A DNA stretch of 33,999 bases from a virus. Of this stretch, positions 8,021 through 33,999 are shown piece by piece. The stretch is taken from IMG/VR virus record IMGVR_UViG_3300043567_000117, positions 1 to 33,999 of that record; one strand, given 5' to 3'. Below the pieces are notes generated by a model. The model did not search any database, was not told the DNA's origin, and saw only the letters and a program-made list of their open reading frames with translations. Every line of letters starts with the position of its first letter. The stretch's first letter is position 1. Made by a program: the position numbers and the translations under genes.

Positions 8021-8899
8021 ATGAACATTCTGCTTGATATCAATGGAGGGCTTGGCAAGAACATAGCCTCAACAGCATTTTGTGCAAGGATAAAAAAGAA
8101 ATATCCTGAAAGTAAACTGATAGTATTTACATTTTGGAAAGATGCTTTTCTAAATAATCCTAATGTAGATGTATGTCTTGAAAAAGGAGAGGACAATGAC
8201 TTCTATGAAAAGTACGTTGAAGGACAAGAGATTTTATTTTTAGTAACTGATCCGTATTTAATGAATGCCCATATGAATAAAAAGGAGCATTTAATACAGA
8301 CATGGTTTTCAATGATTGGAGAGGAATACAATGATGAACTTCCTGAACTTTATTTTACCAAACAAGAGAAGCAATACTACAATCAGTTCTTTAAGTTTCC
8401 AAAAGATGTATTTATAATTCAGGCTAATGGTGGAGGGAAACCTCAGCAGGGAATGGATTCATATAATTGGGCTAGAGATATTCCACCTAATTTGGTCCAA
8501 AAAATTATTGATAAGTATAGTGAAGATTATTCTGTTGGAGTAATAAGACAAGGACATCAAATAAAGTATAACAATTGTCTAGATTTCAGAGACAAATGGA
8601 GAATGCTTGCAATAGGAATGAAGTCTTCAAATAAGAGACTATTTATAGATAGTTCTTTTCAGCATGTTGCAGCAGCATTAAATTTACCATCTACAGTTCT
8701 TTGGAGCGTAACTGATCCTAAAGTATTTGGGTACAAAATACATGACAACATATTAGCAAATCCTCATACTAAATATCAAAAACCTACAGATATTGCAAAT
8801 AAGTTTAGGTTTGTTGAACCTTTACAAAATATGCCATATGAAAGTTTTAACGAAGTTTTCAACTTTGATTCCATAATCAAATCTATTAATAGACAATGA
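8021..8899 (+). CDS. GT9-like (heptosyltransferase-like, GT-B) glycosyltransferase, 292 aa
   Basis: Likely transfers a sugar to an unknown acceptor. The N-terminus DINGGLGKNIASTAFCARIK followed by KKKYPESKLIVFT matches the opening of glycosyltransferase family 9 proteins, where a glycine-rich loop precedes a helix and a beta strand. The C-terminal half has FIDSSFQHVAAALNLPSTVL, equivalent to the 'DSG-x-x-H-x-A-A-x-x-x-x-P' nucleotide-sugar site of the family. Length is close to, slightly below, the usual 300-350 aa. The last bases form an ATGA overlap with a DUF6165 gene. Bacterial relatives act in lipopolysaccharide synthesis. In a phage late operon, next to fibres, it could modify a virion protein or the host surface; neither is shown here. 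Alternative: a GT-B fold enzyme of another family. Confidence 0.72.
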   Translation: MNILLDINGGLGKNIASTAFCARIKKKYPESKLIVFTFWKDAFLNNPNVDVCLEKGEDNDFYEKYVEGQEILFLVTDPYLMNAHMNKKEHLIQTWFSMIGEEYNDELPELYFTKQEKQYYNQFFKFPKDVFIIQANGGGKPQQGMDSYNWARDIPPNLVQKIIDKYSEDYSVGVIRQGHQIKYNNCLDFRDKWRMLAIGMKSSNKRLFIDSSFQHVAAALNLPSTVLWSVTDPKVFGYKIHDNILANPHTKYQKPTDIANKFRFVEPLQNMPYESFNEVFNFDSIIKSINRQ

Positions 8900-9633: not shown

Positions 9634-9634
9634 T

Positions 9635-9874
9635 ATGTCAACTATCAACTCATACGCTACAGATACTAATGTATCTTATAACGATAAGCTTATTGGGACT
9701 GATGCTGAAGACAGCAACAAGACTAAGAACTTTACCATTGGAAGCATTTTATCTATGCCACTTCCAAATGTACCTGTATACCCTAACAATGCAGCAGCCA
9801 TTGCAGCAGGACTAACTGTTGGACGAGTTTATAGAATTACAGGAAGTACAGGACAACTAGCGGTTGTATTTTAA
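9635..9874 (+). CDS. Mini fibre-like protein sharing the N-terminus of the 1280-aa fibre, 79 aa
   Basis: Residues 1-38 align without gaps to the start of the 1280-aa fibre, with 20 of 38 identical (M-S-x-I-x-S-Y ... D-x-LIGTD ... N-x-TKNF-x-I-x-SI). The rest, VPVYPNNAAAIAAGLTVG and YRITGSTGQLAVVF, is a small unit I know from the C-termini of many phage fibre proteins. The gene is thus a fibre reduced to its attachment piece and tip unit. It may be a minor structural protein sharing a binding site with the long fibre, or a decayed remnant; its intact frame and regular spacing favour a real gene. It starts one base after the previous stop. Confidence 0.7.
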   Translation: MSTINSYATDTNVSYNDKLIGTDAEDSNKTKNFTIGSILSMPLPNVPVYPNNAAAIAAGLTVGRVYRITGSTGQLAVVF

Positions 9875-9901
9875 ATACATTCCGAAATAAAATTTAATCT
9901 A

Positions 9902-10129
9902 ATGGACATAAGAAAAATATCGGTAGGACCTGATTATAAAGGAAGCTCAATGCATTACATCGTAGGACAGAAAGTTCTTGGTGATACATATGAAATAGAG
10001 GCTATCCTTTTTAATGTTGACTTAGGATCAATACGTGTTTATATTAGAAACGAAAAGAATGAGACTGTAATGTGGAAAGAATTCAACCACAATATGCCTA
10101 TTTCAATTGAATATAATATAAACTACTAA
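9902..10129 (+). CDS. Small conserved phage protein, 75 aa
   Basis: Unknown function. The protein MDIRKISVGPDYKGSSMHYIV... is compact, with alternating charged and beta-like segments, and ends EFNHNMPISIEYNINY. I recall a similar protein ('DIRKISVG-x-DYK ... MHY-x-VGQ') next to GroES-like and terminase genes in environmental phages, so it seems conserved in position, but no role is known to me. It has no cysteine, signal peptide or membrane segment. Its stop codon overlaps the start of the GroES-like gene by one base (TAATG), suggesting translational coupling. The 27 bases before it hold no clear promoter. Confidence 0.65.
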   Translation: MDIRKISVGPDYKGSSMHYIVGQKVLGDTYEIEAILFNVDLGSIRVYIRNEKNETVMWKEFNHNMPISIEYNINY

Positions 10130-10692
10130 TGAAATCCCCATTCGATTTTATCGTTAGACCAATAAATGGTGAGCGATACAATAACACCAAGGAAAGCGGT
10201 GGTATTGAAATAATTGTCAATACATCAGAAGAAGACCATAGGTTCTCCAATAGATATGCTGAGGTTATTGAGGTTCCCTATGGATATGATGGCCCTATAC
10301 AATCAGGTGATATCTTATTGGTTCACCATAATGTATTCAAGTTCTATAATGACATTAGAGGAAGACGTAAAAGTAGTCGTGCATTTTTTAGAGACGATCA
10401 GTTCTTTATAGAGCCTGATCAGTTTTTCATGTACAAGCGTAATGGGGAGTGGCATACTTATAATCGATTCTGTTTTGTAAAGCCTATACCGGCAATTGAG
10501 AGTTACATCATGAAACCATTTACTCATGAGCCTCTTATGGGTGAGATGGTGTATCCAAATGAATACTTAATTTCACAGGGTATAAAGGCAGGAGATATTG
10601 TTTGTTTCAAGCCTGATAGTGAGTATGAGTTTGATATTGATGGAGAAAAACTTTATAGGATGTTTGACCATCAAATAACTATGGTTCTATGA
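10129..10692 (+). CDS. GroES-like co-chaperonin, 187 aa
   Basis: Probable co-chaperonin that would cap a GroEL ring, comparable in role to T4 gp31. Residues ~1-75 carry a GroES-like barrel: FDFIVRPINGERYNN at the start, a polar loop around 'SEEDHRFSNR', then 'EVIEVPYGYDGPIQSGDILLVHH', matching the GroES phrase 'G-x-V-x-x-V-x-x-x-x-x-x-x-P-x-x-x-GD-x-V-L'. The second half repeats the pattern in part (FCFVKPIPAIE, then 'GIKAGDIVCFKPDSEYEFDIDGEKLYRM'), so the protein may be a double barrel, nearly twice a GroES (~95 aa). The hydrophobic GroEL-binding loop is not obvious. No GroEL gene is present in the window, so it would use the host's. It overlaps its neighbours by 1 and 4 bases, in the packaging operon. 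Family assignment rests on pattern memory. Confidence 0.6.
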   Translation: MKSPFDFIVRPINGERYNNTKESGGIEIIVNTSEEDHRFSNRYAEVIEVPYGYDGPIQSGDILLVHHNVFKFYNDIRGRRKSSRAFFRDDQFFIEPDQFFMYKRNGEWHTYNRFCFVKPIPAIESYIMKPFTHEPLMGEMVYPNEYLISQGIKAGDIVCFKPDSEYEFDIDGEKLYRMFDHQITMVL

Positions 10693-10982
10693 GAGATCCT
10701 AAGGAAATAAAACTTAAGATAATTGAAGCAGGTCATCAGGCTGTAGAGCAGTTAATTAAGGTTGCTAAGGAGGCAATCATAAAGCACGAGGATGATGATG
10801 AGTTGTCTGCTGATAGATTAAAGAATGCTGCAGCTACAAAGAAGTTAGCCATCTTTGATGCGTTTGAGATTCTAAATAGAATAGAGTCTGAGCGTGAAGC
10901 TCTTGAGATGTTGGATAAAGGAGTGAACAGAACAGAAACCAAACAGGGATTTGCAGAGCGAAGGTCTATATCGAATCGTTAA
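10689..10982 (+). CDS. Putative small terminase subunit (TerS), 97 aa
   Basis: Short, all-helical, charged protein directly before TerL, with 32 bases of overlap, so the position fits a DNA-recognising small terminase subunit. Visible parts are an N-terminal helix (EIKLKIIEAGHQAVEQLIKVAKEA), an acidic turn (HEDDDELSADR) and a second helix (NAAATKKLAIFDAFEILNRIESE). No helix-turn-helix can be named with confidence, and small terminases vary greatly in sequence. The start is an ATGA overlap with the GroES-like gene, so the three genes 10129-13188 form a coupled set. An alternative is a head-completion or unrelated small protein. Confidence 0.48.
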   Translation: MRDPKEIKLKIIEAGHQAVEQLIKVAKEAIIKHEDDDELSADRLKNAAATKKLAIFDAFEILNRIESEREALEMLDKGVNRTETKQGFAERRSISNR

Positions 10983-13188
10983 GGACTATGTTCCTCAAAA
11001 CGCTATCAGTAAAAAGAATGGCGGTAGATCATGGTTATATGGCTATAATGAGCAATATGACATGGTCGTTATATCTAGGACCGGTGAGATAGGTGATATC
11101 ATAAATATCTCAGGACTTTATATTGCGTTACCTAAAGCACCTAAAGAAGTATATAAAAGATCAGATAAGACTTCAGAACAATATTGGGAAAGACATGACT
11201 TACCTAAAGAGCTGTTAAAGATACAGTCAATCTTTCATTGGAATGAGATGCCTTCTGAATTTAAAGATAGGTGGGTAGACTATATTGAGACAGAGTTTGA
11301 TAGACGTGAGGATGGGATGTGGTTCATGAATGATGGTGAGCCTACGTACATCACAGGATCTCACTACATGTACTTGCAGTGGTCTAGCATTGACGTAGGA
11401 TACGCAGACTACCGTGAAGCAAACAGAATATTCTTTATATTTTGGGAAGCATGTAGAGCTGATAGTAGATCCTTTGGTATGATATACCTAAAGATTAGAC
11501 GTTCAGGGTTCTCCTTCATGTCATCATCTGAGTGCGTGAACATAGCCACTCTTGCTCGTGACTCTCGTGTTGGCATCTTATCAAAGACAGGTGCTGATGC
11601 TAAGAAGATGTTTACTGATAAAGTGGTACCAATAAATAGTAGACTACCATTCTTCTTTAGACCTATCATGGATGGTATGGATAAGCCAAAGACTGAGCTT
11701 GCGTACCGGGTACCTGCATCAAAGATTACAAAGAAGAACATGGCAACATCTTCTGATAATGAAGTAATTGGTCTTGATACTACTATAGATTGGAAGAACA
11801 CTGAAGAAAACTCTTATGATGGTGAGAAGCTATTGTTCTTAGCACATGACGAATCTGCAAAGTGGGTAAAGCCAAATAACATTCTTAACAATTGGAGAGT
11901 AACCAAAACCTGTCTTAGAGTTGGTAGCAAGATCATTGGCAAGTGCATGATGGGATCTACCTCGAATGCTCTAAGCAAAGGTGGTGATAACTATAAGAAA
12001 CTATATGAAGACTCAAATGTACTTCAAAGAAATGCTAATGGTCAAACTAAGAGCGGTCTATACTCATTGTTTATTCCAATGGAATGGAACATGGAAGGAT
12101 TCATTGATAGGTATGGTATGCCTGTATTTAGAAAACCTTCTACTCCTATCATTGGTGTTGACAACCAAATGATAAAAAACGGTGCTATTGATTATTGGGA
12201 AGCTGAGGTTGACTCATTGAAGAATGATGCCGATGCACTCAATGAGTTCTATAGACAATTCCCTAGAACAGAAAGTCATGCTTTCCGTGATGAGAGCAAG
12301 TCATCTATATTTAACTTGACAAAGATCTATCAGCAAATAGACTATAATGATTCAAACATAGAAGGTCAACTAATAACACGTGGATCCTTTCATTGGAGAG
12401 ATGGTGAGAAGGATGGTAAAGTTATATGGACACCTGATCAACGTGGTAGGTTTTTGATAAGTTGGTTTCCCCCACCACATATGCAGAACAATGTATCTAC
12501 AAGGAATGGTGTGAAGTATCCGGGGAATGAACACCTAGGGTCATTCGGATGTGACCCTTATGATATATCAGCAGTTGTAGGTGGACGTGGATCTAATGGT
12601 TCGTTACATGGTATGACTAAGTACCACATGGATGATGCTCCTGTAAATCAATTCTTCTTAGAGTATATCGCTAGACCACAGACCGCAGAGATATTCTTTG
12701 AGGATGTATTGATGGCATGTGTATTTTATGGAATGCCAATGCTTGCAGAGAATAATAAAGCTCGTATATTATATCACTTTAAGAATAGAGGGTATAGAGC
12801 ATTCTCATTGAATAGACCGGATAGAGTATTGAATAAGCTTAGTAAGACAGAACGTGAGCTTGGAGGTATACCAAACTCTTCAGAAGAAGTTAAGCAGGCA
12901 CATGCATCAGCTATTGAAACTTATATTGAAAAGTTTGTTGGGATTGATTCTACAGGATCATATAGACCTACAGATGAAATAGGTAATATGCCATTCACTA
13001 GAACACTAGAAGATTGGGCTAAATTTGATATTAATGATAGAACTAAACACGATGCTTCAATTAGTTCAGGATTAGCTATAATGGCAAATCAAAAGCACGT
13101 ATATTTACCTGATAAAAAAGAGTCAAAAATTAGTGTTAGTTTTGCAAGGTACACTAATAGTGGAACAAGAAGTGAGCTTATTAGATGA
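10951..13188 (+). CDS. terL: Terminase large subunit (TerL), TTG start, 745 aa
   Basis: DNA-packaging motor ATPase and nuclease. The N-terminal ATPase has a Walker A region of unusual form, LKIRRSGFSFMSSS (Lys181, Gly186, Ser188), lacking the usual GKS lysine, like lambda gpA (KSARVGYSK). Walker B is LLFLAHDES (Asp300, Glu301) and the coupling motif is GSTSN (336-339 region). The C-terminal nuclease shows GCDPYDIS (Asp535), FFEDV (Glu584/Asp585 candidate) and KHDASISSGLA (Asp701), giving the acidic triad of RNase H-type terminases. The TTG start at 10951 keeps the conserved opening EGLYRIVKDYVPQ; the next in-frame ATG, in 'YDMVVISRTG', would remove it. It overlaps the gene before by 32 bases and portal by ATGA. 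Confidence 0.92.
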   Translation: MQSEGLYRIVKDYVPQNAISKKNGGRSWLYGYNEQYDMVVISRTGEIGDIINISGLYIALPKAPKEVYKRSDKTSEQYWERHDLPKELLKIQSIFHWNEMPSEFKDRWVDYIETEFDRREDGMWFMNDGEPTYITGSHYMYLQWSSIDVGYADYREANRIFFIFWEACRADSRSFGMIYLKIRRSGFSFMSSSECVNIATLARDSRVGILSKTGADAKKMFTDKVVPINSRLPFFFRPIMDGMDKPKTELAYRVPASKITKKNMATSSDNEVIGLDTTIDWKNTEENSYDGEKLLFLAHDESAKWVKPNNILNNWRVTKTCLRVGSKIIGKCMMGSTSNALSKGGDNYKKLYEDSNVLQRNANGQTKSGLYSLFIPMEWNMEGFIDRYGMPVFRKPSTPIIGVDNQMIKNGAIDYWEAEVDSLKNDADALNEFYRQFPRTESHAFRDESKSSIFNLTKIYQQIDYNDSNIEGQLITRGSFHWRDGEKDGKVIWTPDQRGRFLISWFPPPHMQNNVSTRNGVKYPGNEHLGSFGCDPYDISAVVGGRGSNGSLHGMTKYHMDDAPVNQFFLEYIARPQTAEIFFEDVLMACVFYGMPMLAENNKARILYHFKNRGYRAFSLNRPDRVLNKLSKTERELGGIPNSSEEVKQAHASAIETYIEKFVGIDSTGSYRPTDEIGNMPFTRTLEDWAKFDINDRTKHDASISSGLAIMANQKHVYLPDKKESKISVSFARYTNSGTRSELIR

Positions 13189-21287: not shown

Positions 21288-24200
21288 ATGACTAATATTA
21301 CACGTAATTTTGTAGCAGGTAGAATGAATAAAGTCGTTGATGAACGGCTTATTCCTAATGGTGAATATATTAATGCTCTAAATATTCGCATGGGCTCTAC
21401 TGAGCAATCCGAAATTGGTGTAGTTGAAAATACTAAAGGTAACGAAAGGCTTACCACATTGAAGTACATTAATGGTACTGCATTAAGTTCTTCTGCTAAA
21501 TGTATTGGTGCTGTAGAGGATAGTGCGAATGAAGAGATCTATTGGTTTATTCATGACTCGAACTTTCCGGTAGGTGCTACAGGTAAGCTTGATATGATTG
21601 TATCATTCAATGTTCTTACAGGGATACTAACTTATCATTTGGTCAGCATCAATGATGGAGGTGGTGCTAATACAACTCTTAATTTTAATCCGAAGTATCT
21701 TATTACAGGAGTCAACATAGTTGACAACTTAATATTCTTTACAGACGATTATAATCCTCCACGTGTAATAAATAGAGAAAGAAACTATCCTACTCCTGTA
21801 TCTAATATTGATCAGTTTAGTGCTGAGTCAATCTTAGTTATTAAAAAGCCACCGGTAGAATCTCCCGGTGTTTTACCAATTATTACAGGTCAGCAAGAAA
21901 ATTTTCTAGAGGAAAGATTTATTTGTTTCGCATATAGATATAAGTATGAGGACAATGAATATTCTGCTACATCTCAGTGGTCTGCTCCTGCATTTCAGCC
22001 TAAACCTTTTGAGTTCAGTATTGATAGCTTCTTAAATGAGGGCATGGTCAATGTGAATAATACTGCGATTATAACTTATAATACAGGTGGACCATTAGTA
22101 AAGGGTGTTGATTTGCTATTTAAGGATACCACATCAAACGTCATCAAAGTAATTGAAAGTCTGAACAAGGCAGATCTAGGTCTTGCAGACAATACTAATT
22201 ACAATTATACATTTACCAACAGTAAGATATTTAAAGTACTACCTGACTCTGAATTGCTTAGGCTTTATGACAACGTGCCATTACAAGCAAAAGCACAGAC
22301 AATCATGGGTAATCGTTTGATGTATGGGAACTACGTTGAAGGATATGACATGGTTGATGAAGATGGAGCTCCTGTTATGCTTGAGTATTCTGCTAACCTA
22401 GTGTCTGAATTAATTGATTCATCTACTATACCTGATAGCACAGGAACCGGAACATACAGTTTTGGTGGGGCACAAACTATTGCGAATTCAGTTATCTTAC
22501 TAGAGCTTGATTCGGTTGATTTAGTTGAAGGAGCATCTATAACTATTGATTTGAGATTATCTCATTCACAGTTTTCAGGAGATACTCCATTCCCTACTGA
22601 ACAGACACAAGATGTAAACTTGGTATTCTCATTTGTGTTGCCAAGAGATTACAGTTCTGTTTATGCTATGGCTACTAGTGTGGAGTTTCAAGATATTGTA
22701 GGTGTAGGTGGTGTTGATGGAAATATTCAGCCAATTGCTACATCTTGTAATGGGACAACATTTACTGATCAATTCAATTGTGCATTGCCACTAAACTTGG
22801 ATGCACTAATAAAATATGAAAGTGGTATAAGTGCTGCAGGTCAAGGAGTTAACATCATAACTAATCCTGCTAGTAATCAATTGGGACTTCAGTTCCCTGT
22901 AATGAGATATGTAGATAATACTACAACTCCTACTGTAAGTGTTTACGAGTATTATGAAGTAGTATTTTCAGAAGCATTCTATCAAAAGATAAACTCTCCA
23001 AGAAGCTTGCATAGCAACAGAGGATATGAGATTGGTATTGTTTATATGGACGAATTTGGTAGATCATCTACTGCATTAGTTAGTCCTAACAATACGGTTA
23101 ATGTACCATGCTCTGCTTCTGATACAAAGAATACAATACAGGTTACTATACCAACTGCACAGAAAGCTCCATATTGGGCAAGCAGATATAAGTTTGTTAT
23201 CAAGCCTGATGAGGAGAACTACGAGACTATTTATACTAGCATATTCTTTTTAGATCCATTATCTAACTCAGCTTACTTTTTGCTTGAGGGAGAGAATGCT
23301 AGGAAGGTAGAGCAAGGAGATAGATTGATAGTAAAGGCTGATACTAGTGGTCCAACAAATACATGCGTATATGCAACAGTTCTTGAAAAGGCTTCTAAAG
23401 CATCAGGATTTATTGAGATACCAAGTGAACTAGACCCATCAGTAAATATTCCTGTGCCATCAGGAGTATATATGAAGATCAATCCAAACAGCTTTGCTGT
23501 TGTTCAAGATGAACTTGCTCTTATTGCTCCGGGTAATGTTAAGGTAGACGAAAAAAATGGAGGAGACTTTCCTATATTAAACTACCAAATGAACCGGTAT
23601 GATACTGCATCTTCAAGATGGGAAGATTATAATATACCTGCAGGAAGTAGAATAAAGTTAGACCTTAAGTTTGAACGTCTTGGATCAGGTGATGGAGACA
23701 ATGATTGTGAAAAGCGTGTATATACTCTAGATAAAACTTTAGTTGCATCAGCTACTTACAATAACATTAAAGATTGGTGGGATGGAGATCATGTTGAGAA
23801 AGTTCTAAATGAGGGCTTTGCTGATGTTGGTGGTAATGGTTGTGATATTGAGAATGAATATGATGACACATTAGCAACAAATAATACTGATGTTGAGCCT
23901 ACGGTATGCACAAATAAATATAGATTTTATAGATACCCTGATACAATAGGAAGTCCAAATAGAAATAAGCTTGTTCTTATTGTAAGTGGTACTAGAAGCT
24001 GTGGGAGAAATGATAGAAGAAAGTCTAGCGTTAGTGCAAACATTCAAGTATTCAGAACGGAGACTACTTTAATATTTGAGACTCAGCCTTCTGAAGCTTT
24101 ACCTGATGTATTCTTTGAGAATGAGTTGTCATTCCCAATTGTAAATGGATACCATGTTGGGAACTTACAAACTCAGACATCTACATTACCGGCTATTATT

Positions 24201-25703
24201 GACACTAATTTCTTTAACTGCTTTTGTTTTGGTAATGGTGCTGAGAGTTATAAGATTCGAGACTCTATTGATGATAGAACATTTAATCTTGGTACTAGAG
24301 TAACTACTATTTCTGAAGAAGGATTTAGACGTTTCGATAGATTTGCTGATATAACTTATAGTGGTAGGTTTAATCTTGAGTCCAATATAAATAAGCTCAA
24401 TGAGTTTAACCTAGGGCTACTGAACTATAAACCACTAGAGATTGCATTTGGTCCTATATACATCCTAGATGGAAGAGAGACTGACGTTCTTGTTTTGCAA
24501 GAAGATAAGATCTCTTATGTGTTGGCTTCAAAGAACTTGTTGTCTGACTCTACAGGTGGAGGAGTTGTTGCTTCTGTTCCTGAAGTATTAGGTACTCAAA
24601 TTGCTAGGACTGAAAAGTATGGTATTAGTTTCCATCCTGAGAGTTATGTTCAATGGGGATTCAATAGATTCTTTACTGATGTAAAACGTGGAGCTGTTAT
24701 TCAGCTTTTTGGAAACTCATCTTCAGGGGACCAATTAAATGTCATATCTGAAGCAGGTATGCGTACATGGTTTAGAGATGTATTCATTGATTCTTTTAAC
24801 ACTCAGAAGCTTGGATCATTTGACCCATACATGAATGAGTATGTTCTAAGTTCAAATGACATAGAATTACCACAGCCACAAGATTGTTTATCATGTGGGG
24901 TTATTCAGACATTCAATATACCTGCAGGAGAAACGGTTACTTACTGTGTAGATCTAGGAGTTATTATTGGAGAGAGTACAATATCTTATACTGTTGATGA
25001 ATCTTCTACTGCTGATTTCGAAGTAGATGTTGAATACAATGGAACAACTGTTAGCTCAGGTGTTACAGATGAGTCAGGTGAACTAGTTATTAATAAGACT
25101 CTAAATACTGTAAACGAAGTACAGGTAACTATTTCTGCTGTAAATGCATTGACTATCACAGTGAATGCTCAATGCCCAATAGCTGATGAGATAACCATAA
25201 TTAATGTATGTGTTACTAGTGCACCTGAAAGTGGCAAGTTTATTCACAATGAATACAGATATAATGTAGGTACATTTACATCTCCATTACAATCTAATCT
25301 TGTAACATTTGCAACAGGATCTTCAAGTCCAATTGTATCTCAGTTTAGTTCATTGACAGGAGCACCGGGAACCGGAGGGTTCCCACCTGCAGGAGCTACT
25401 ATGAGAATTGCTTCTAATAAAATAGGATTTGATACATTTGTATTTAACTTAGCTACTGATAAATTTAGATTCTTAAGAACCAATACACTATATACACCTA
25501 GTAATGTGCTATCATTGATAGCTGCATCAACTAACGTAACAGCATCAGGATCAGGAAATTATTATTCAGGAACATTTACTGTGCCTAGCTCAGGTCAATA
25601 TTTATATTTGATATGGGATTATAGAGACTCACAGCAAATAAGCTTGTGCTATTCAAATCTTAATGATCAGGATGCATGCTGCGGATGTAATCCACCAACT
25701 TAA
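21288..25703 (+). CDS. Tail stabilisation protein (P22 gp10-like), very large, with C-terminal extension, 1471 aa
   Basis: Structural protein of the short tail, likely the lower tail tube or 'muzzle'. The start 'TRNFVAGRMNKVVDERLIPNG' plus 'EYINALNIRMGSTEQSEIGVVEN' is the signature N-terminus of gp10-like stabilisation proteins in Bacteroidota and environmental podoviruses ('F-x-x-GxMNK-x-x-DERL-x-P-x-GEY'). The main body (residues ~1-1190) is beta-rich, with Ig-like and propeller-like stretches. The part after residue ~1198 begins at 'PQDCLSCGV' and forms an additional beta-sandwich-like tail ending in 'DQDACCGCNPPT'. P22 gp10 has only ~470 aa, so this version is about three times larger; the family in crAss-like phages is also large. 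A receptor-contact role for the extension is possible. No catalytic motif was seen. Confidence 0.83.
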   Translation: MTNITRNFVAGRMNKVVDERLIPNGEYINALNIRMGSTEQSEIGVVENTKGNERLTTLKYINGTALSSSAKCIGAVEDSANEEIYWFIHDSNFPVGATGKLDMIVSFNVLTGILTYHLVSINDGGGANTTLNFNPKYLITGVNIVDNLIFFTDDYNPPRVINRERNYPTPVSNIDQFSAESILVIKKPPVESPGVLPIITGQQENFLEERFICFAYRYKYEDNEYSATSQWSAPAFQPKPFEFSIDSFLNEGMVNVNNTAIITYNTGGPLVKGVDLLFKDTTSNVIKVIESLNKADLGLADNTNYNYTFTNSKIFKVLPDSELLRLYDNVPLQAKAQTIMGNRLMYGNYVEGYDMVDEDGAPVMLEYSANLVSELIDSSTIPDSTGTGTYSFGGAQTIANSVILLELDSVDLVEGASITIDLRLSHSQFSGDTPFPTEQTQDVNLVFSFVLPRDYSSVYAMATSVEFQDIVGVGGVDGNIQPIATSCNGTTFTDQFNCALPLNLDALIKYESGISAAGQGVNIITNPASNQLGLQFPVMRYVDNTTTPTVSVYEYYEVVFSEAFYQKINSPRSLHSNRGYEIGIVYMDEFGRSSTALVSPNNTVNVPCSASDTKNTIQVTIPTAQKAPYWASRYKFVIKPDEENYETIYTSIFFLDPLSNSAYFLLEGENARKVEQGDRLIVKADTSGPTNTCVYATVLEKASKASGFIEIPSELDPSVNIPVPSGVYMKINPNSFAVVQDELALIAPGNVKVDEKNGGDFPILNYQMNRYDTASSRWEDYNIPAGSRIKLDLKFERLGSGDGDNDCEKRVYTLDKTLVASATYNNIKDWWDGDHVEKVLNEGFADVGGNGCDIENEYDDTLATNNTDVEPTVCTNKYRFYRYPDTIGSPNRNKLVLIVSGTRSCGRNDRRKSSVSANIQVFRTETTLIFETQPSEALPDVFFENELSFPIVNGYHVGNLQTQTSTLPAIIDTNFFNCFCFGNGAESYKIRDSIDDRTFNLGTRVTTISEEGFRRFDRFADITYSGRFNLESNINKLNEFNLGLLNYKPLEIAFGPIYILDGRETDVLVLQEDKISYVLASKNLLSDSTGGGVVASVPEVLGTQIARTEKYGISFHPESYVQWGFNRFFTDVKRGAVIQLFGNSSSGDQLNVISEAGMRTWFRDVFIDSFNTQKLGSFDPYMNEYVLSSNDIELPQPQDCLSCGVIQTFNIPAGETVTYCVDLGVIIGESTISYTVDESSTADFEVDVEYNGTTVSSGVTDESGELVINKTLNTVNEVQVTISAVNALTITVNAQCPIADEITIINVCVTSAPESGKFIHNEYRYNVGTFTSPLQSNLVTFATGSSSPIVSQFSSLTGAPGTGGFPPAGATMRIASNKIGFDTFVFNLATDKFRFLRTNTLYTPSNVLSLIAASTNVTASGSGNYYSGTFTVPSSGQYLYLIWDYRDSQQISLCYSNLNDQDACCGCNPPT

Positions 25704-28737: not shown

Positions 28738-30552
28738 ATGGCAGGTACATATTATAAATACGCAGAACGAGACGTTGATAGTCAGGTAAATTGGGCTCAG
28801 GTAGGAAAGGACCTGAGTGATATGCTTTTAAAAGAAACTGAGCTAAGAGAACAGAAGAAAGCTGAGATTGATAGGCAGTCTAGAGAACTAGGTCAAAGAT
28901 TAGAGAATCTTCCTACAGGAAATTCTGATGAGATAAATTCATGGACTACTAATTTTGCATCTGATATGCAGTCTTATAGATTGCTTACTGATAAACTTTT
29001 AAAATCAGGTAATCTAAAACTAAAAGATTATAATCTGATAAGACAGAATACTCTTGATGGTACAACAAACGTACTTAATTTATCCAAAGAATTCCAAGCA
29101 GAGTTTGACGAGAAAATGAAGAGACGTATGGAAGACGTTTCATCAGAAGCAGAAACTCAAATGATGGCATTCTTAGAAGGGTTCTCAAACTTAGCAAAAA
29201 CAAAACCTGTAATTAATGCTGCCACCGGTGCTGTGAGTTTAGCCAAAATGGAGAAGGGGCCTGATGGTGTATTAAGAATTAAAGAAGGTAATGACAGTAC
29301 TGTAACTTCTGCTCAAGCTCGTGAAAGATTAAAGCTAAGAATCGATAAGTATAAACTTAATGATGCCCTTGCTAGTGAAGTTAAATTAATGGGTAAAGTT
29401 GTAGAGGAAGTTCAGACTGCTGCCGGTACAATTTATTCACAGGGTATGATTACTAAACTTAGTGATCCCACTCAAAGGAAAGGATTAAAACAAGAAGGTC
29501 AAGAAGCAGTTAATAACTATCTAGATATAGAAAATAAAATTATAGAATCTAAAATTTCTAATCCATTTCACGTTTCTTCAATCTTATTTGATTGGTCAGG
29601 TGGAGTAGATCCAAATACAAACACTCCTTATCAGATAACATTTGATAAAGATCTTGCAGCTACTAGTTCGCATTATATCCTTTGGTCTGAACAGGATGGG
29701 GTTCTTCAACCTGATTTTGAATCAACAGATAATGGTGAACTTCAGTATAATAATGCCAAAGAATATTCTAAGTTAAAATTCAGAAGTATGCTTGAGCAAA
29801 GCAAAGAGCTTAAGCCTACATCTCAACTATCAGATCAAAGAAGAACTCCTAGTTCAACTGATTATGAAAGACAAGACTTACAGACAAAGGCTGATAACTT
29901 TGGTAAGAATGTGGCTTTCTTAGTAGCAGGTAATGAAGCCCAAAAAAGATTAGCAGTAGATTATTTCAGAGGTATTCAAGGTATAAAAGGATTTGAGGTA
30001 TTGGATAATGCTATTAATATTCTTAGAGGATCACAATCAATACCTTATGAATACAGAGGGTCAGCAATAGACTATGCTAGTTCTCTTATTTCTAATTTGA
30101 ATAGAGATGTAGGTCTACCTGAGAATATGATTATGAATGCTGTCCAAAGATTCTTACCTAATCAAAATATTTCAAGAATAAAGCTTGGAAGAATTGAGAA
30201 TCTAGCAGCAAGAGATTATAAACCTGAGGTAGCTAAATATAGTGTAGATAATGTAGTTATTTCAGAAGATAATCCTCAAGCTACAACAGCATATTTAAAT
30301 GATAAATTTGGTAAATTAGGATTCTCATTTAGTGGTGGAACAGATGGGGCAACTGATGACTACATAATAGCTGTCAGTCCTACAGGTGCAGTTTCTCCTA
30401 GATTACAAATTGATGACTTGTCTAATTTGAGTGTAATTATTAAATTTATACAGGATAACTTTGACCCTAATTTAGCAGGGCAAATGTTTGAACCTCAAAA
30501 TGAACAGCAGGGTAATACAGGACAACAGGGTGGCCAAGCCCCAAGAGGATAA
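28738..30552 (+). CDS. Internal virion (cargo-type) protein, 604 aa
   Basis: I recognise the N-terminus 'MAGTYYKYAERDVDSQVNWA' followed by 'DMLLKETELREQKKAEIDR' and 'LLKSGNLKLKDYNLIRQNTLDGT' as a family located between tail and internal-protein genes in environmental podoviruses. Residues ~20-250 are helical and likely coiled-coil, the middle contains a beta-rich part ('VSSILFDWSGGVDPNTNTPYQ'), and the last ~25 residues are Gln/Gly-rich and flexible ('NEQQGNTGQQGGQAPRG'). No catalytic motif is visible. It follows the 268-aa protein by 6 bases and precedes the large protein by 14 bases. Role as an internal or cargo protein is inferred from its neighbours and from related genes in phages lacking a tape measure. 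Confidence 0.58.
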   Translation: MAGTYYKYAERDVDSQVNWAQVGKDLSDMLLKETELREQKKAEIDRQSRELGQRLENLPTGNSDEINSWTTNFASDMQSYRLLTDKLLKSGNLKLKDYNLIRQNTLDGTTNVLNLSKEFQAEFDEKMKRRMEDVSSEAETQMMAFLEGFSNLAKTKPVINAATGAVSLAKMEKGPDGVLRIKEGNDSTVTSAQARERLKLRIDKYKLNDALASEVKLMGKVVEEVQTAAGTIYSQGMITKLSDPTQRKGLKQEGQEAVNNYLDIENKIIESKISNPFHVSSILFDWSGGVDPNTNTPYQITFDKDLAATSSHYILWSEQDGVLQPDFESTDNGELQYNNAKEYSKLKFRSMLEQSKELKPTSQLSDQRRTPSSTDYERQDLQTKADNFGKNVAFLVAGNEAQKRLAVDYFRGIQGIKGFEVLDNAINILRGSQSIPYEYRGSAIDYASSLISNLNRDVGLPENMIMNAVQRFLPNQNISRIKLGRIENLAARDYKPEVAKYSVDNVVISEDNPQATTAYLNDKFGKLGFSFSGGTDGATDDYIIAVSPTGAVSPRLQIDDLSNLSVIIKFIQDNFDPNLAGQMFEPQNEQQGNTGQQGGQAPRG

Positions 30553-30566
30553 AAAAATAAATACTT

Positions 30567-33500
30567 ATGGATGAGAAATACATACTAGACCTGTATAATA
30601 CTGTAGTAAAGAATGATCCATCTTTCAAGGTGGATGTATCCTTTGATTCATTCAGACAAAAAATGTCTGATCAGAATTATGCCAAGAGAATATATGGGTG
30701 GGTATCAGGTGTTGATCAAGAGTTTAAGAACAACAATCCTGAAGATCAGTTCATGAAACTATTATCAGCTGAAACTGCTTCTCCAATGAGTGGACTAGCA
30801 GGGACTCCTATTGATAGAGAGATAAAAAAAAAAGACAATACGGCATCATCTTTGGAAGATGGTTTATTGGCATACAGGAGATTTAATCCTACCACAGGAA
30901 AGATTGAAGGAGAGGGACCTGAGACTGAGTCTGTCCAAGTAGTAGAACAGGAAGGCCCTGCACAGCAGCCTAGAGATTTAAATACAGGTGAGTACATTTT
31001 AAACTCAATGAATGCTGTTAGTAGGGGATTCTATAAGAACTTAATTGGTAATCCTATTAAAGGACTTGGTACCTTATTGGAGAAAGGTAATCCTTCTAGA
31101 CTTTTTGGAGACTCAGGAAAGAGTCCTATCAGTGATTCTCTTATTGAATTCGGTACATGGTTTAATAATGCCATTGATGAAGTAGCTCAACAAGATGAAG
31201 CGTTCAAAGGAACATTAGTTGATCAGGGTGGACAGGCAATGGGTCAAGTACTGTCTACTATTCTTACTGCAGGGCTTGGTGGTATGGCATCAAAAACTTT
31301 AGGAGGAGCTTCAGCAATACCTACACTTCAAACAGCTGCAACAACAGGTGCAGCTGCAGAGGTAGCAAAGGATGTTGCAACAGGGGTTGTAAGTCTTCCG
31401 GGTATAAGCATGGCTCTAAGTGTAGGGCAATCCGAATTTGACAGAGCTAAACAAGCAGGTGCCACTGATGATCAGGCATTTGAAGCTTTCTATAAAAATG
31501 CAGTGACAGGATCAATCCTTGAAAGAGTTCCTGCTATGCAGTTCTTAAGGAGATTTAATAAGGCATCTAAAGGATCAGTTATAGATTATATAAAAACCAA
31601 GGGGGTTGCAGGTGTTACAGGTGGTTTAGAAGAAATGACTACTGAAATATTACAGCAATTGTACTCTAATAAAACTGCTCAGGAAATTTATAATATAAAT
31701 CAAGAGTTGTTTGAAGGGGTTGGTGAATCCGGTGGGATAGGTTTTGGTATTGGTTTTCTTCTTAATGCATTAGGTGCTAATGCTAGGATATTAAGACAGT
31801 CAGGTAAAAATACTGAAGCTAATACAATAGAACAACAGATATCTGAATTTGAGAATAGAGCTGAGAAGGGAGGTAAATCAAACTACAAGGTAAATGGATT
31901 TAGTATAACGGATCCAAAGATTATCAGTGACATGATTGATAAGCTTAGTGGAGTTGATCTAGCAAATTCAAATATTGAAATCATTAATGATCCTGAGCTT
32001 AATACCAAACTACAAAATAAGATAGTTGACGATTCACTTAAAGATCAAATAAGAAAAGCCAATCCTGATCTTAATAATGCAAGCGTTAATGCTATCGCAG
32101 GACTACAGAAAGAATTAAATAATTTAGAAGGTAATACAACTCAGGTTGCTAAGGATAGAGCAGCTGAGATTAGAACTAAGATAAAAGATATTCAGGCAAA
32201 TCAACTGACAGAAGAGCCAACAACATATAGAGTTGATGGTAAGGATGTGTCTGTAGATTATATTGATGAGCTGATAAAAACTAAAAGCAAGGAAGAACTT
32301 CTTGCTATGAATATTGAAATAAATAATGATCAAACAGGATTAGCAGAAAGACTACAGGCTGCAGGAGGAGCTAAAGCTGCTTCTCCTACAGTAGAGACTC
32401 CAATCTCTCTTACAGAGGAGTTGGCACAATCTATTGCTGAAAAACGAAAAGCAAGAATTACTGAGTTAGAAGATTTACTTGATTTAGATTTTGCAATAAC
32501 TCAAGAAACAGGGAAAGGAAACCTATCATTTGATGAGAGACGAGAAATAAAACAAGAGTTACAAAAATTAAACGCAGAACAAGATGCCTTTCAAGAGCAA
32601 GCAGCAGGTCAAGTACCTGTTCAGCCAACAGCCACAGTTGGCCAAGAAGTGGAGGGAGGAATATCCCAAGCAGAACCTCAAGTCACTCCCCAAGAAGGTC
32701 TCCAAGAAGAGATAGATAAGATTAATCAGGAAAGAGAAAAAGAGCTTAAGTCTTTTAGCGGCCCATTAACTCAACCTTATTTTATATTTGAAACAGATGG
32801 ACCAACAGTAGAAGAATACATTAATAAAAAGTATGACGATAAGATAAATGAGTTGACATCTAAGTCTTCAACTCAAGAAGTCAAACCTAGAATATTAACA
32901 GAGAGCTTAGGGAGTGGTGTCGTTAAATATTCAAGTGTTGATGAGAACGGAAATGAGATTGGATCTGCAACTGTATCTGTTGTCGATGACAAAGTTATTG
33001 TCGATGATATATTCGTACAAGAAGAATCAAAGAGAAAGGGAGTAGCTACAAGTATCTTTGATAAGATAACAGAAGACTACAAAGGAAAGTCTTTCGATTA
33101 TGTCGATGCCAATAATAGAGAATTTAGCAAGCCTTATCAGTTAGAGTTTGGTACTGTAGTATCAGATGAAGGATCTGCTTTTGTAGAATCTGTAAAAGAA
33201 AAAACAGAAAAGTTTAATGCAGATCAAAAAGGAGCAAGAGATGCTACAGAATTCAGCTTTGATAATCTATCAAGACAGCCACTAAAAGTATTAGAAGACA
33301 AGCTTGAAGAAATAAATAATAGTTTCCCTGCTGATCCTGATGTTGACAAAGCACAAACAGATGCACTTGCTGAACAAAGGAAAGCTGTTAAGGATGAGAT
33401 TGAAAAAGCGAAGGCACAAATAAATACTGCGATTGAATCAGCTAAATCAAATCTTGGTAACAGACTACAAGGAGATGACTTAGATAATGCTATAGATTTG

Positions 33501-33999
33501 ATCGATGAGCTTTCTGATAACAAGGCTGAGATAGATGAGGATGGTATGGTAACTGTTTACCATAGAACTACTCCTGATAAGAAAGCTGAGATTGAGAAGA
33601 CAGGCAATATGAAGGGCCTTGAGGATGGGGTATTCTTTTCAACTAAAGAGACAGGTCAAGCAGAAGGTTACGGTGATGCAATTGTAAAACTAAAGATACC
33701 TGTAGAACAATTAATTCTTGATGATACATTTGGAGATGAGGCCCATGTAAGAATACCTACAAAGAAAGCCGGTGAGGTAGTAAAAGTAAAAGACTACATA
33801 CAAGCTGAACAAAAAGGAAAGTTAGAAGAAGTAGGTCAAGGATTAAATGAGACTGATCTTCCCGGATATGATAAGATGATGAATGCAATTAATGATATCA
33901 TCTATCGAGCATCCAATAGAGCTGATTCAACTCCTGAAACAGTAATGGATGGGGTTATCAAATATCTTCAGACTAGATCTCAGGCTTATATAAATGCTA
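30567..33999 (+). CDS. Giant internal virion protein with GNAT-like and ART-like domains, 3' end cut off
   Basis: The frame is open from ATG 30567 to the window edge (1144 codons seen), so the protein is longer. N-terminal ~220 residues are mixed. Residues ~222-250 and ~391-405 are hydrophobic, Gly/Ala-rich ('QAMGQVLSTILTAGLGGMAS', 'GFGIGFLLNALGA') around 'AGATDDQAFEAFYKNAVTG', a phrase I know from large phage internal proteins. Helical linkers follow. Residues ~782-870 look like a GNAT acetyltransferase: 'SATVSVVDDKVIVDDIFV' then R/K-x-x-G-x-A at 815-827 (Arg823, Gly825). Residues ~994-1077 look like an ADP-ribosyltransferase: YHRTT (His999), GVFFST (1021-1026), AEGYG, GDEAH (Glu1058). Such multi-domain proteins are 'polyvalent proteins' that enter the cell with the DNA. 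Both domain calls are fold-pattern inference; activities unproven. Confidence 0.7.
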   Translation, partial: MDEKYILDLYNTVVKNDPSFKVDVSFDSFRQKMSDQNYAKRIYGWVSGVDQEFKNNNPEDQFMKLLSAETASPMSGLAGTPIDREIKKKDNTASSLEDGLLAYRRFNPTTGKIEGEGPETESVQVVEQEGPAQQPRDLNTGEYILNSMNAVSRGFYKNLIGNPIKGLGTLLEKGNPSRLFGDSGKSPISDSLIEFGTWFNNAIDEVAQQDEAFKGTLVDQGGQAMGQVLSTILTAGLGGMASKTLGGASAIPTLQTAATTGAAAEVAKDVATGVVSLPGISMALSVGQSEFDRAKQAGATDDQAFEAFYKNAVTGSILERVPAMQFLRRFNKASKGSVIDYIKTKGVAGVTGGLEEMTTEILQQLYSNKTAQEIYNINQELFEGVGESGGIGFGIGFLLNALGANARILRQSGKNTEANTIEQQISEFENRAEKGGKSNYKVNGFSITDPKIISDMIDKLSGVDLANSNIEIINDPELNTKLQNKIVDDSLKDQIRKANPDLNNASVNAIAGLQKELNNLEGNTTQVAKDRAAEIRTKIKDIQANQLTEEPTTYRVDGKDVSVDYIDELIKTKSKEELLAMNIEINNDQTGLAERLQAAGGAKAASPTVETPISLTEELAQSIAEKRKARITELEDLLDLDFAITQETGKGNLSFDERREIKQELQKLNAEQDAFQEQAAGQVPVQPTATVGQEVEGGISQAEPQVTPQEGLQEEIDKINQEREKELKSFSGPLTQPYFIFETDGPTVEEYINKKYDDKINELTSKSSTQEVKPRILTESLGSGVVKYSSVDENGNEIGSATVSVVDDKVIVDDIFVQEESKRKGVATSIFDKITEDYKGKSFDYVDANNREFSKPYQLEFGTVVSDEGSAFVESVKEKTEKFNADQKGARDATEFSFDNLSRQPLKVLEDKLEEINNSFPADPDVDKAQTDALAEQRKAVKDEIEKAKAQINTAIESAKSNLGNRLQGDDLDNAIDLIDELSDNKAEIDEDGMVTVYHRTTPDKKAEIEKTGNMKGLEDGVFFSTKETGQAEGYGDAIVKLKIPVEQLILDDTFGDEAHVRIPTKKAGEVVKVKDYIQAEQKGKLEEVGQGLNETDLPGYDKMMNAINDIIYRASNRADSTPETVMDGVIKYLQTRSQAYINA

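What the first reader, a model, noticed from the sequence alone, without database searches (positions are those of the whole stretch)
30567..33999. Putative ejected 'polyvalent' protein carrying acetyltransferase-like and ADP-ribosyltransferase-like domains
The sequence shows one continuous frame with a hydrophobic Gly/Ala-rich region, a GNAT-like motif (IFVQEESKRKGVA at residues 815-827) and an H-x-T ... G-x-FFST ... E-type ART pattern (His999, 1023-1026, Glu1058). Polyvalent proteins of phages and conjugative elements (described by Iyer, Aravind and co-workers) carry such domains and are thought to protect incoming DNA or modify host proteins. If virion-packaged, this protein could modify the host at the moment of DNA entry. 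The continuing C-terminus could hold further domains.
Basis: partly seen in the sequence, partly recalled or inferred. Interest (0 to 1): 0.66.

Follow-up and report, generated by a model that had tools for sequence, protein, structure and literature searches.

The report
Phage injected protein with two enzymes
The last gene of this bacterial virus's capsid-and-tail operon encodes a giant protein, probably shot into the host with the DNA, that carries a small acetyltransferase and a so far uncatalogued kind of ADP-ribosyltransferase domain, so the virus may chemically modify host molecules at the moment of infection.

Summary
Window 30567-33999 is one open frame (1144 codons, cut by the contig end). 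A 94% identical gene elsewhere is complete at 2389 aa and adds no further recognisable domain. The gene closes the late operon (terminase, portal, capsid, tail) of a podovirus related to Flavobacterium elemo and Cellulophaga phi38:1/phi40:1 phages; in phi40:1 the gene in that position was found in virions by MS/MS. The ART domain is not the usual polyvalent family (ART-PolyVal, H-Y-D). It belongs to a separate family absent at cut-off from Pfam and NCBIfam, with H999 and F-S-T invariant in 20 relatives; E1058 is kept in 17 of 20. Relatives sit in giant phage proteins beside known polyvalent domains, including ART-PolyVal itself. Most likely: an ejected, mosaic polyvalent protein modifying host macromolecules early in infection. 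Predicted folds, context and conservation are shown; packaging of this protein, catalysis and targets are inferred. New variant of a known kind.

The parts
30567..33999 (+). Open reading frame of the giant protein, 1144 codons, truncated by the contig end (complete relative: 2389 aa, L002)
30984..31871 (+). Gly/Ala-rich hydrophobic domain, residues ~140-435, conserved in giant proteins of related phages (L003, L004, L012); proposed delivery or membrane part
32883..33131 (+). Compact RimI-like GNAT domain, residues ~773-855
   Evidence: TIGR01575 rimI 5e-5, Acetyltransf_7 7.6e-4, phrog_3810 3e-4; AF2 model and fold searches
33009..33047 (+). GNAT acetyl-CoA loop IFVQEESKRKGVA, residues 815-827
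33444..33821 (+). ADP-ribosyltransferase-fold domain of an uncatalogued family, residues ~960-1085
33561..33563 (+). H999, invariant in 20 relatives, strand 1 of the ART fold
33633..33644 (+). FFST, residues 1023-1026; F1024, S1025 and T1026 invariant
33723..33725 (+). D1053, invariant in 20 relatives, in the strand before E1058
33738..33740 (+). E1058, at the start of a strand, Glu in 17 of 20 relatives and Asn in 3; candidate catalytic Glu
28738..30552 (+). Upstream late gene (604 aa), conserved neighbour of the giant gene in MW202828, L005, L012 and, weakly, L015-L017
27925..28731 (+). Late gene (268 aa) two upstream of the giant gene, conserved neighbour
21288..25703 (+). Large tail protein (1471 aa); 30-38% identical in three segments to phi40:1 gp097, which was found in virions by MS/MS
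10951..13188 (+). Terminase large subunit, marks the late operon and the phage group

Best explanation
The gene encodes a polyvalent cargo protein of a podovirus of Bacteroidota. It is made late with the virion proteins and packed in the particle. It is ejected into the host with or ahead of the DNA, probably with help from the conserved Gly/Ala-rich N-terminal domain. Inside, its compact RimI-like GNAT (residues ~773-855) would acetylate, and its ART-fold domain (~960-1085, H999, S1025/T1026, E1058) would ADP-ribosylate, host macromolecules, most likely proteins, to favour early infection. Shown: open frame, both folds in prediction, conservation, operon position, modular reuse of the ART domain among giant phage proteins. 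Inferred: packaging of this very protein, ejection, catalysis, substrates.
For: ART: AF2 model pLDDT 87, pTM 0.81; of 50 PDB entries listed by VIA-align most are ART-superfamily, Tpt1/KptA first at Z up to 8.3, rmsd 2.2 over 74 residues. In a separate profile alignment H999 falls on the KptA HGT histidine and FFST on its HLS serine, score above all 100 column shuffles. H999, F1024, S1025, T1026, D1053 invariant in 20 sequences, E1058 in 17; dN 0.15 against dS 1.46 to L012. GNAT: profile matches, model and fold searches. Polyvalent context: relatives carry ART-PolyVal at 100.8 bits, LPD22, LPD23 and HExxH zincin motifs. Delivery: last gene of the late operon; phi40:1 gp101 in the same position found by MS/MS; crAss001 carries cargo proteins in capsid and tail (PMC10172136).
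Against: No direct sequence similarity between this protein and phi40:1 gp101, so packaging is inferred from position. Foldseek against PDB gives the ART model only weak E-values (best 0.09). E1058 is Asn in 3 of 20 relatives, and the standalone DAC19 relative has lost the His. The GNAT model was made from one sequence (pLDDT 65) and the domain has no sequence relative outside the near-identical L002.
Confidence: 0.7

Rival explanations
1. The ART-fold domain works on nucleic acid, like Tpt1/KptA or RNA-targeting ART toxins: it ADP-ribosylates or removes a phosphate from RNA or DNA ends, for example to repair tRNA cut by host defences or to mask phage DNA, rather than modifying proteins.
For: Tpt1/KptA are the closest solved structures. 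Four of 20 members give weak Tpt1/KptA profile matches, best E 0.023. The first two active-site segments align in register.
Against: The N-terminal lobe of KptA is replaced by two helices, E1058 has no evident counterpart in KptA, and KptA's catalytic Arg residues are not apparent. Structural nearness does not fix the substrate.
Confidence: 0.15
2. The protein is chiefly an ejection or pore protein: the Gly/Ala-rich domain and long helical C-terminus help pass DNA through the envelope, and the GNAT and ART folds are idle passengers or decayed enzymes.
For: The Gly/Ala-rich domain is the part shared with L003 and L004, which lack this ART family. Some relatives have lost the His or Glu.
Against: Active-site residues are intact here and the ART domain is under strong purifying selection; it is swapped as a module among otherwise unrelated giant proteins.
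Confidence: 0.1
3. The protein is made late but not packaged; it acts inside the infected cell on assembly, lysis or superinfecting phages.
For: Late-gene position alone does not prove packaging; no mass spectrometry exists for this protein.
Against: phi40:1 gp097-gp101, the whole last stretch of the operon including the giant last gene, were detected in virions.
Confidence: 0.05

Closest known systems
Phage polyvalent proteins (Iyer et al. 2017, PMC5512222)
   Same: Giant late-gene product joining unrelated enzyme domains; a RimI-like GNAT next to an ART, an arrangement that paper reports; domain relatives co-occur with ART-PolyVal, LPD22, LPD23 and zincin motifs
   Different: The ART is not the H-Y-D family of that paper, and no catalogued LPD or zincin motif is found in this protein or its complete relative
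ART-PolyVal, PF18760 (Tox-ART-HYD2 clade)
   Same: ART fold, His in strand 1, found in polyvalent proteins
   Different: No Pfam match here; F-S-T in place of the strand-2 Tyr and Glu in place of Asp; both kinds occur side by side in L029
Tpt1/KptA RNA 2'-phosphotransferase
   Same: Closest solved fold, Z up to 8.3; HGT and HLS motifs align with YHRT and FFST
   Different: No N-terminal winged lobe, has E1058, lies in a giant phage protein
T4 Alt and other R-S-E ARTs
   Same: A phage-injected ART is the working model; Ser-Thr and Glu positions resemble R-S-E enzymes
   Different: His instead of Arg in strand 1; the R-S-E class is said not to occur in genuine polyvalent proteins
Crassvirus cargo proteins gp45-gp50 of phi-crAss001 and Cellulophaga phi40:1 gp101
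   [quoted passage not shown])
   Different: No detectable direct sequence similarity between the window protein and phi40:1 gp101; the crAss001 proteins were not compared; no DxDxD polymerase motif in the window or L002 protein

Membership tests
Phage polyvalent proteins | Two or more unrelated biochemical domains in one polypeptide | tested here: met
   GNAT and ART folds (predicted)
Phage polyvalent proteins | Encoded among late virion genes of a portal-terminase phage | tested here: met
Phage polyvalent proteins | Domains shared with other polyvalent architectures | tested here: met
   ART-family relatives with ART-PolyVal, LPD22, LPD23
Phage polyvalent proteins | Packaged and delivered into the host with the DNA | not testable with these tools
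   Only a positional counterpart, phi40:1 gp101, has MS/MS evidence
ART superfamily | ART fold | tested here: met
   Predicted model only
ART superfamily | Conserved three-part active site (strands 1, 2, 5) | tested here: met
   H999 and S1025-T1026 invariant, E1058 in 17 of 20
ART superfamily | NAD-dependent ADP-ribosyl transfer | not testable with these tools
   Needs a biochemical assay
ART-PolyVal (PF18760, H-Y-D) | Profile match over Pfam cut-off | tested here: not met
   No match for the window domain up to E 5; 1 of 20 members at E 0.076
ART-PolyVal (PF18760, H-Y-D) | His, Tyr, Asp in strands 1, 2 and 5 | tested here: not met
   His, Ser/Thr, Glu; an invariant D1053 lies five residues earlier
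Alt/VIP2 R-S-E ARTs | Arg in strand 1 | tested here: not met
   H999 invariant
Tpt1/KptA | Two-lobed enzyme with N-terminal winged-helix lobe | tested here: not met
   The model has only two helices before the ART core, and only the C-terminal lobe of Tpt1 aligns
GNAT superfamily | GNAT beta-sheet and alpha core | tested here: met
   Single-sequence model; top PDB matches are GNATs
GNAT superfamily | Acetyl-CoA loop [QR]xxGx[GA] | tested here: inconclusive
   K-R-K-G-V-A: Lys in the first place

The most novel reading that the evidence does not exclude
The domain founds a separate, widespread family of phage-delivered ARTs with an H-(S/T)-E active site, used by phages of many hosts in parallel with ART-PolyVal and aimed at a substrate not yet seen for phage ARTs, possibly RNA or DNA ends as the KptA likeness hints.
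Probability: 0.3. Interest if true: 0.68.

Novelty: new variant of a known kind. Interest (0 to 1): 0.5.

Why it matters
ARTs are the commonest protein-modifying domains reported in phage polyvalent proteins, yet they were described as one H-Y-D family (PMC5512222). A second family, unnamed in Pfam and NCBIfam, that is swapped among giant proteins of different phages widens the set of enzymes phages may inject and gives small, expressible domains with named residues to test. It also labels the giant last gene of elemo- and Cellulophaga-type podoviruses as a variable, effector-carrying locus.

Tried and rejected
Direct homology of the giant protein to phi40:1 gp101, elemo QMP84709 and MW202828 UOF82488: none found for the window protein. 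A common N-terminal packaging motif: an HMM from three N-termini found only its own seeds and near-identical copies, so dropped. Relatives of the GNAT segment in IMG/VR and phage records: none but L002. Solved-structure search by sequence: nothing significant. ART-PolyVal in 199 genomes of one phylum: nothing, and the control genomes did not ring either, so uninformative. Virion RNA polymerase: no DxDxD motif in the window or L002 protein. The C-terminal half of L002 has no match in phage records and no Pfam or PHROG domain. Elemo and MW202828 giant proteins do not contain this ART family by HMM. No RNA family, tRNA or notable promoter or terminator signal in or near the gene.

Full report
Observation. 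The frame from 30567 to the window end is open for 1144 codons. The window is a whole IMG/VR virus record of 33999 bases, so the gene is cut by the contig end. Contig IMGVR_UViG_3300044535_001837 (L002) holds a 94% identical, complete gene of 2389 aa followed by genes on the other strand. Between the two copies dS is 0.128 and dN 0.029; codons 801-1144, which hold most of the GNAT and the ART domain, differ by two synonymous changes only, while codons 301-400 have dS 1.27, a sign of recombination.

Setting. Terminase (45% to Flavobacterium elemo phages, 77% to MW202828), portal and several virion proteins place the phage among podoviruses of Bacteroidota. Portal matches include Cellulophaga phi38:1 at 34%. 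The giant gene is the last of the late operon. The same place holds a 3694-aa 'structural protein' in elemoA, a 3859-aa protein in MW202828 and gp101 (1691 aa) in phi40:1, whose record marks gp097 to gp101 as structural proteins by experimental MS/MS. The window's tail gene 21288-25703 is homologous to gp097. The giant proteins themselves hardly align: gp101 to elemo at E 2.7e-4, elemo to MW202828 at 3e-9, MW202828 to L015 at 3e-38, but none of gp101, elemo or MW202828 to the window protein. So packaging of the window protein is an inference from position. Crassvirus phi-crAss001 carries comparable cargo in capsid and tail (PMC10172136).

Mosaic build. BLAST and HMM comparisons show separate pieces shared with different giant proteins: the Gly/Ala-rich domain (residues ~140-435) with L003 and L004 at 54-58% and with L012; the ART domain with L012, L013, L014, L015-L017; a linker (residues 529-598) with L005. 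L012, from the same phage group by its upstream genes, has the ART domain first and a different GNAT after it.

ART domain. Starting from the window, then from alignment A1, relatives were found in 23 IMG/VR contigs and two MAG contigs. Most lie in frames of 600 to 3700 residues, some cut by the ends of the fetched stretches. In a 20-sequence alignment H999, T1001, F1024, S1025, T1026, P1045, D1053, F1055 and A1059 are invariant; E1058 is Glu in 17 and Asn in L035, L037 and L042. AlphaFold2 with that set (alignment A3) gives pLDDT 87, pTM 0.81. VIA-align over Foldseek's candidates lists Tpt1/KptA (Z 7.5-8.3, rmsd 2.2-2.8 over 73-78 residues) in the first 14 rows, then TreTu, Agrobacterium 6b, HopF, RhsP2, diphtheria toxin, PARPs and iota toxin. 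Z near 8 alone is modest by the tool's own note and Foldseek E-values are weak; the weight comes from most rows being one superfamily, while the GNAT model handled the same way returns GNATs. Independently, a profile alignment with KptA C-lobes (four usable sequences out of nine loci) puts H999 and FFST on KptA's HGT and HLS motifs, scoring above 100 column shuffles, though narrowly (21.93 against 21.36).

Which ART. Canonical polyvalent ARTs have His, Tyr, Asp; R-S-E enzymes such as T4 Alt were said not to occur in genuine polyvalent proteins (PMC5512222). This domain has His, Ser/Thr, Glu. No Pfam or NCBIfam family matches it at cut-off; phrog_6170, of unknown function, matches at E 1.4e-3. 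In L029 it stands before a full ART-PolyVal domain (100.8 bits) and after LPD23; L025, L030 and L035 carry LPD22 or LPD23. HExxH zincin motifs occur in several of these proteins and in the MW202828 and elemo giants but not in the window or L002 protein. Standalone relatives exist in Bacteroides phages DAC16-DAC23 and SJC03 and in mycobacteriophages, all annotated hypothetical; DAC19's lacks the His, Lumos's lacks the Glu.

GNAT domain. RimI (TIGR01575) matches at 5e-5, three Pfam GNAT models at about 1e-3, phrog_3810 at 3e-4, all curated models below their cut-offs. A single-sequence model (pLDDT 65, about 80 in the core) has four strands, the long helix after the acetyl-CoA loop and a further strand. 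Foldseek's best hit is 4crz at E 9.8e-4 (a small GNAT of the PanZ type, by recall), and VIA-align's rows are GNATs, including RimI. Iyer et al. describe RimI-like GNATs beside ARTs in polyvalent proteins, the arrangement seen here.

Mechanism. Most likely the protein is loaded into the virion, ejected at infection and acts early by acetylating and ADP-ribosylating host molecules. Predicted folds, conservation, selection, operon place and modular exchange are shown here by computation; packaging, ejection, catalysis and targets are inferred. The KptA likeness keeps an RNA or DNA substrate open.

Verdict. What is added: the ART belongs to a separate uncatalogued family, the gene is 2389 aa in a relative, and the giant-gene position has virion evidence in phi40:1. 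A new variant of a known kind, of moderate interest.

Noticed in passing
window 31467-31766 (codons 301-400): Within the giant gene this stretch has dS 1.27 to L002 while codons 801-1144 are almost identical, which points to recent recombination.
   Followed up: partly
L016 1393-12357 (and L015): A frame of at least 3655 aa carrying this ART family, then an ART-PolyVal-like segment, and three zincin-like HExxH or HExxGH motifs.
   Followed up: partly
L035, L037, L042: A subfamily of the ART domain with Asn for the Glu and Asp for the His two residues on (DNAD instead of DEAH); it may use another residue or be inactive.
   Followed up: no
L008 11953-12447; L059 741-1127: Standalone relatives: DAC19_91 next to a 2657-aa gene, without the His; Lumos gp072, with YHRA and LST but without the Glu.
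   Followed up: partly
L010 2983-14067: The elemo giant structural protein carries a DUF3293 domain (E 1e-12) of unknown function and a HExxH motif.
   Followed up: no
MW202828 741-12320 and 15202-15612: Annotated 'reticulocyte binding/rhoptry protein' and 'N-terminal acetyltransferase complex subunit'; by position and similarity these are phage late genes and the names look wrong.
   Followed up: partly
ART model mfe6af7bec26b against BFVD: Many T4-type RIIB proteins appear among weak matches of the ART model; whether RIIB holds an ART-like fold was not examined.
   Followed up: no
window 9634-10128: About 495 bases without a frame of 80 aa or more inside an otherwise dense operon; no Rfam match or tRNA.
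   Followed up: partly
window 8021-8899: By eye resembles a glycosyltransferase or heptosyltransferase-like protein; not tested.
   Followed up: no
window 10129-10692: Homologous (35%) to an elemo gene annotated chaperonin cpn10; elemo and MW202828 also carry GroEL/GroES genes elsewhere.
   Followed up: no
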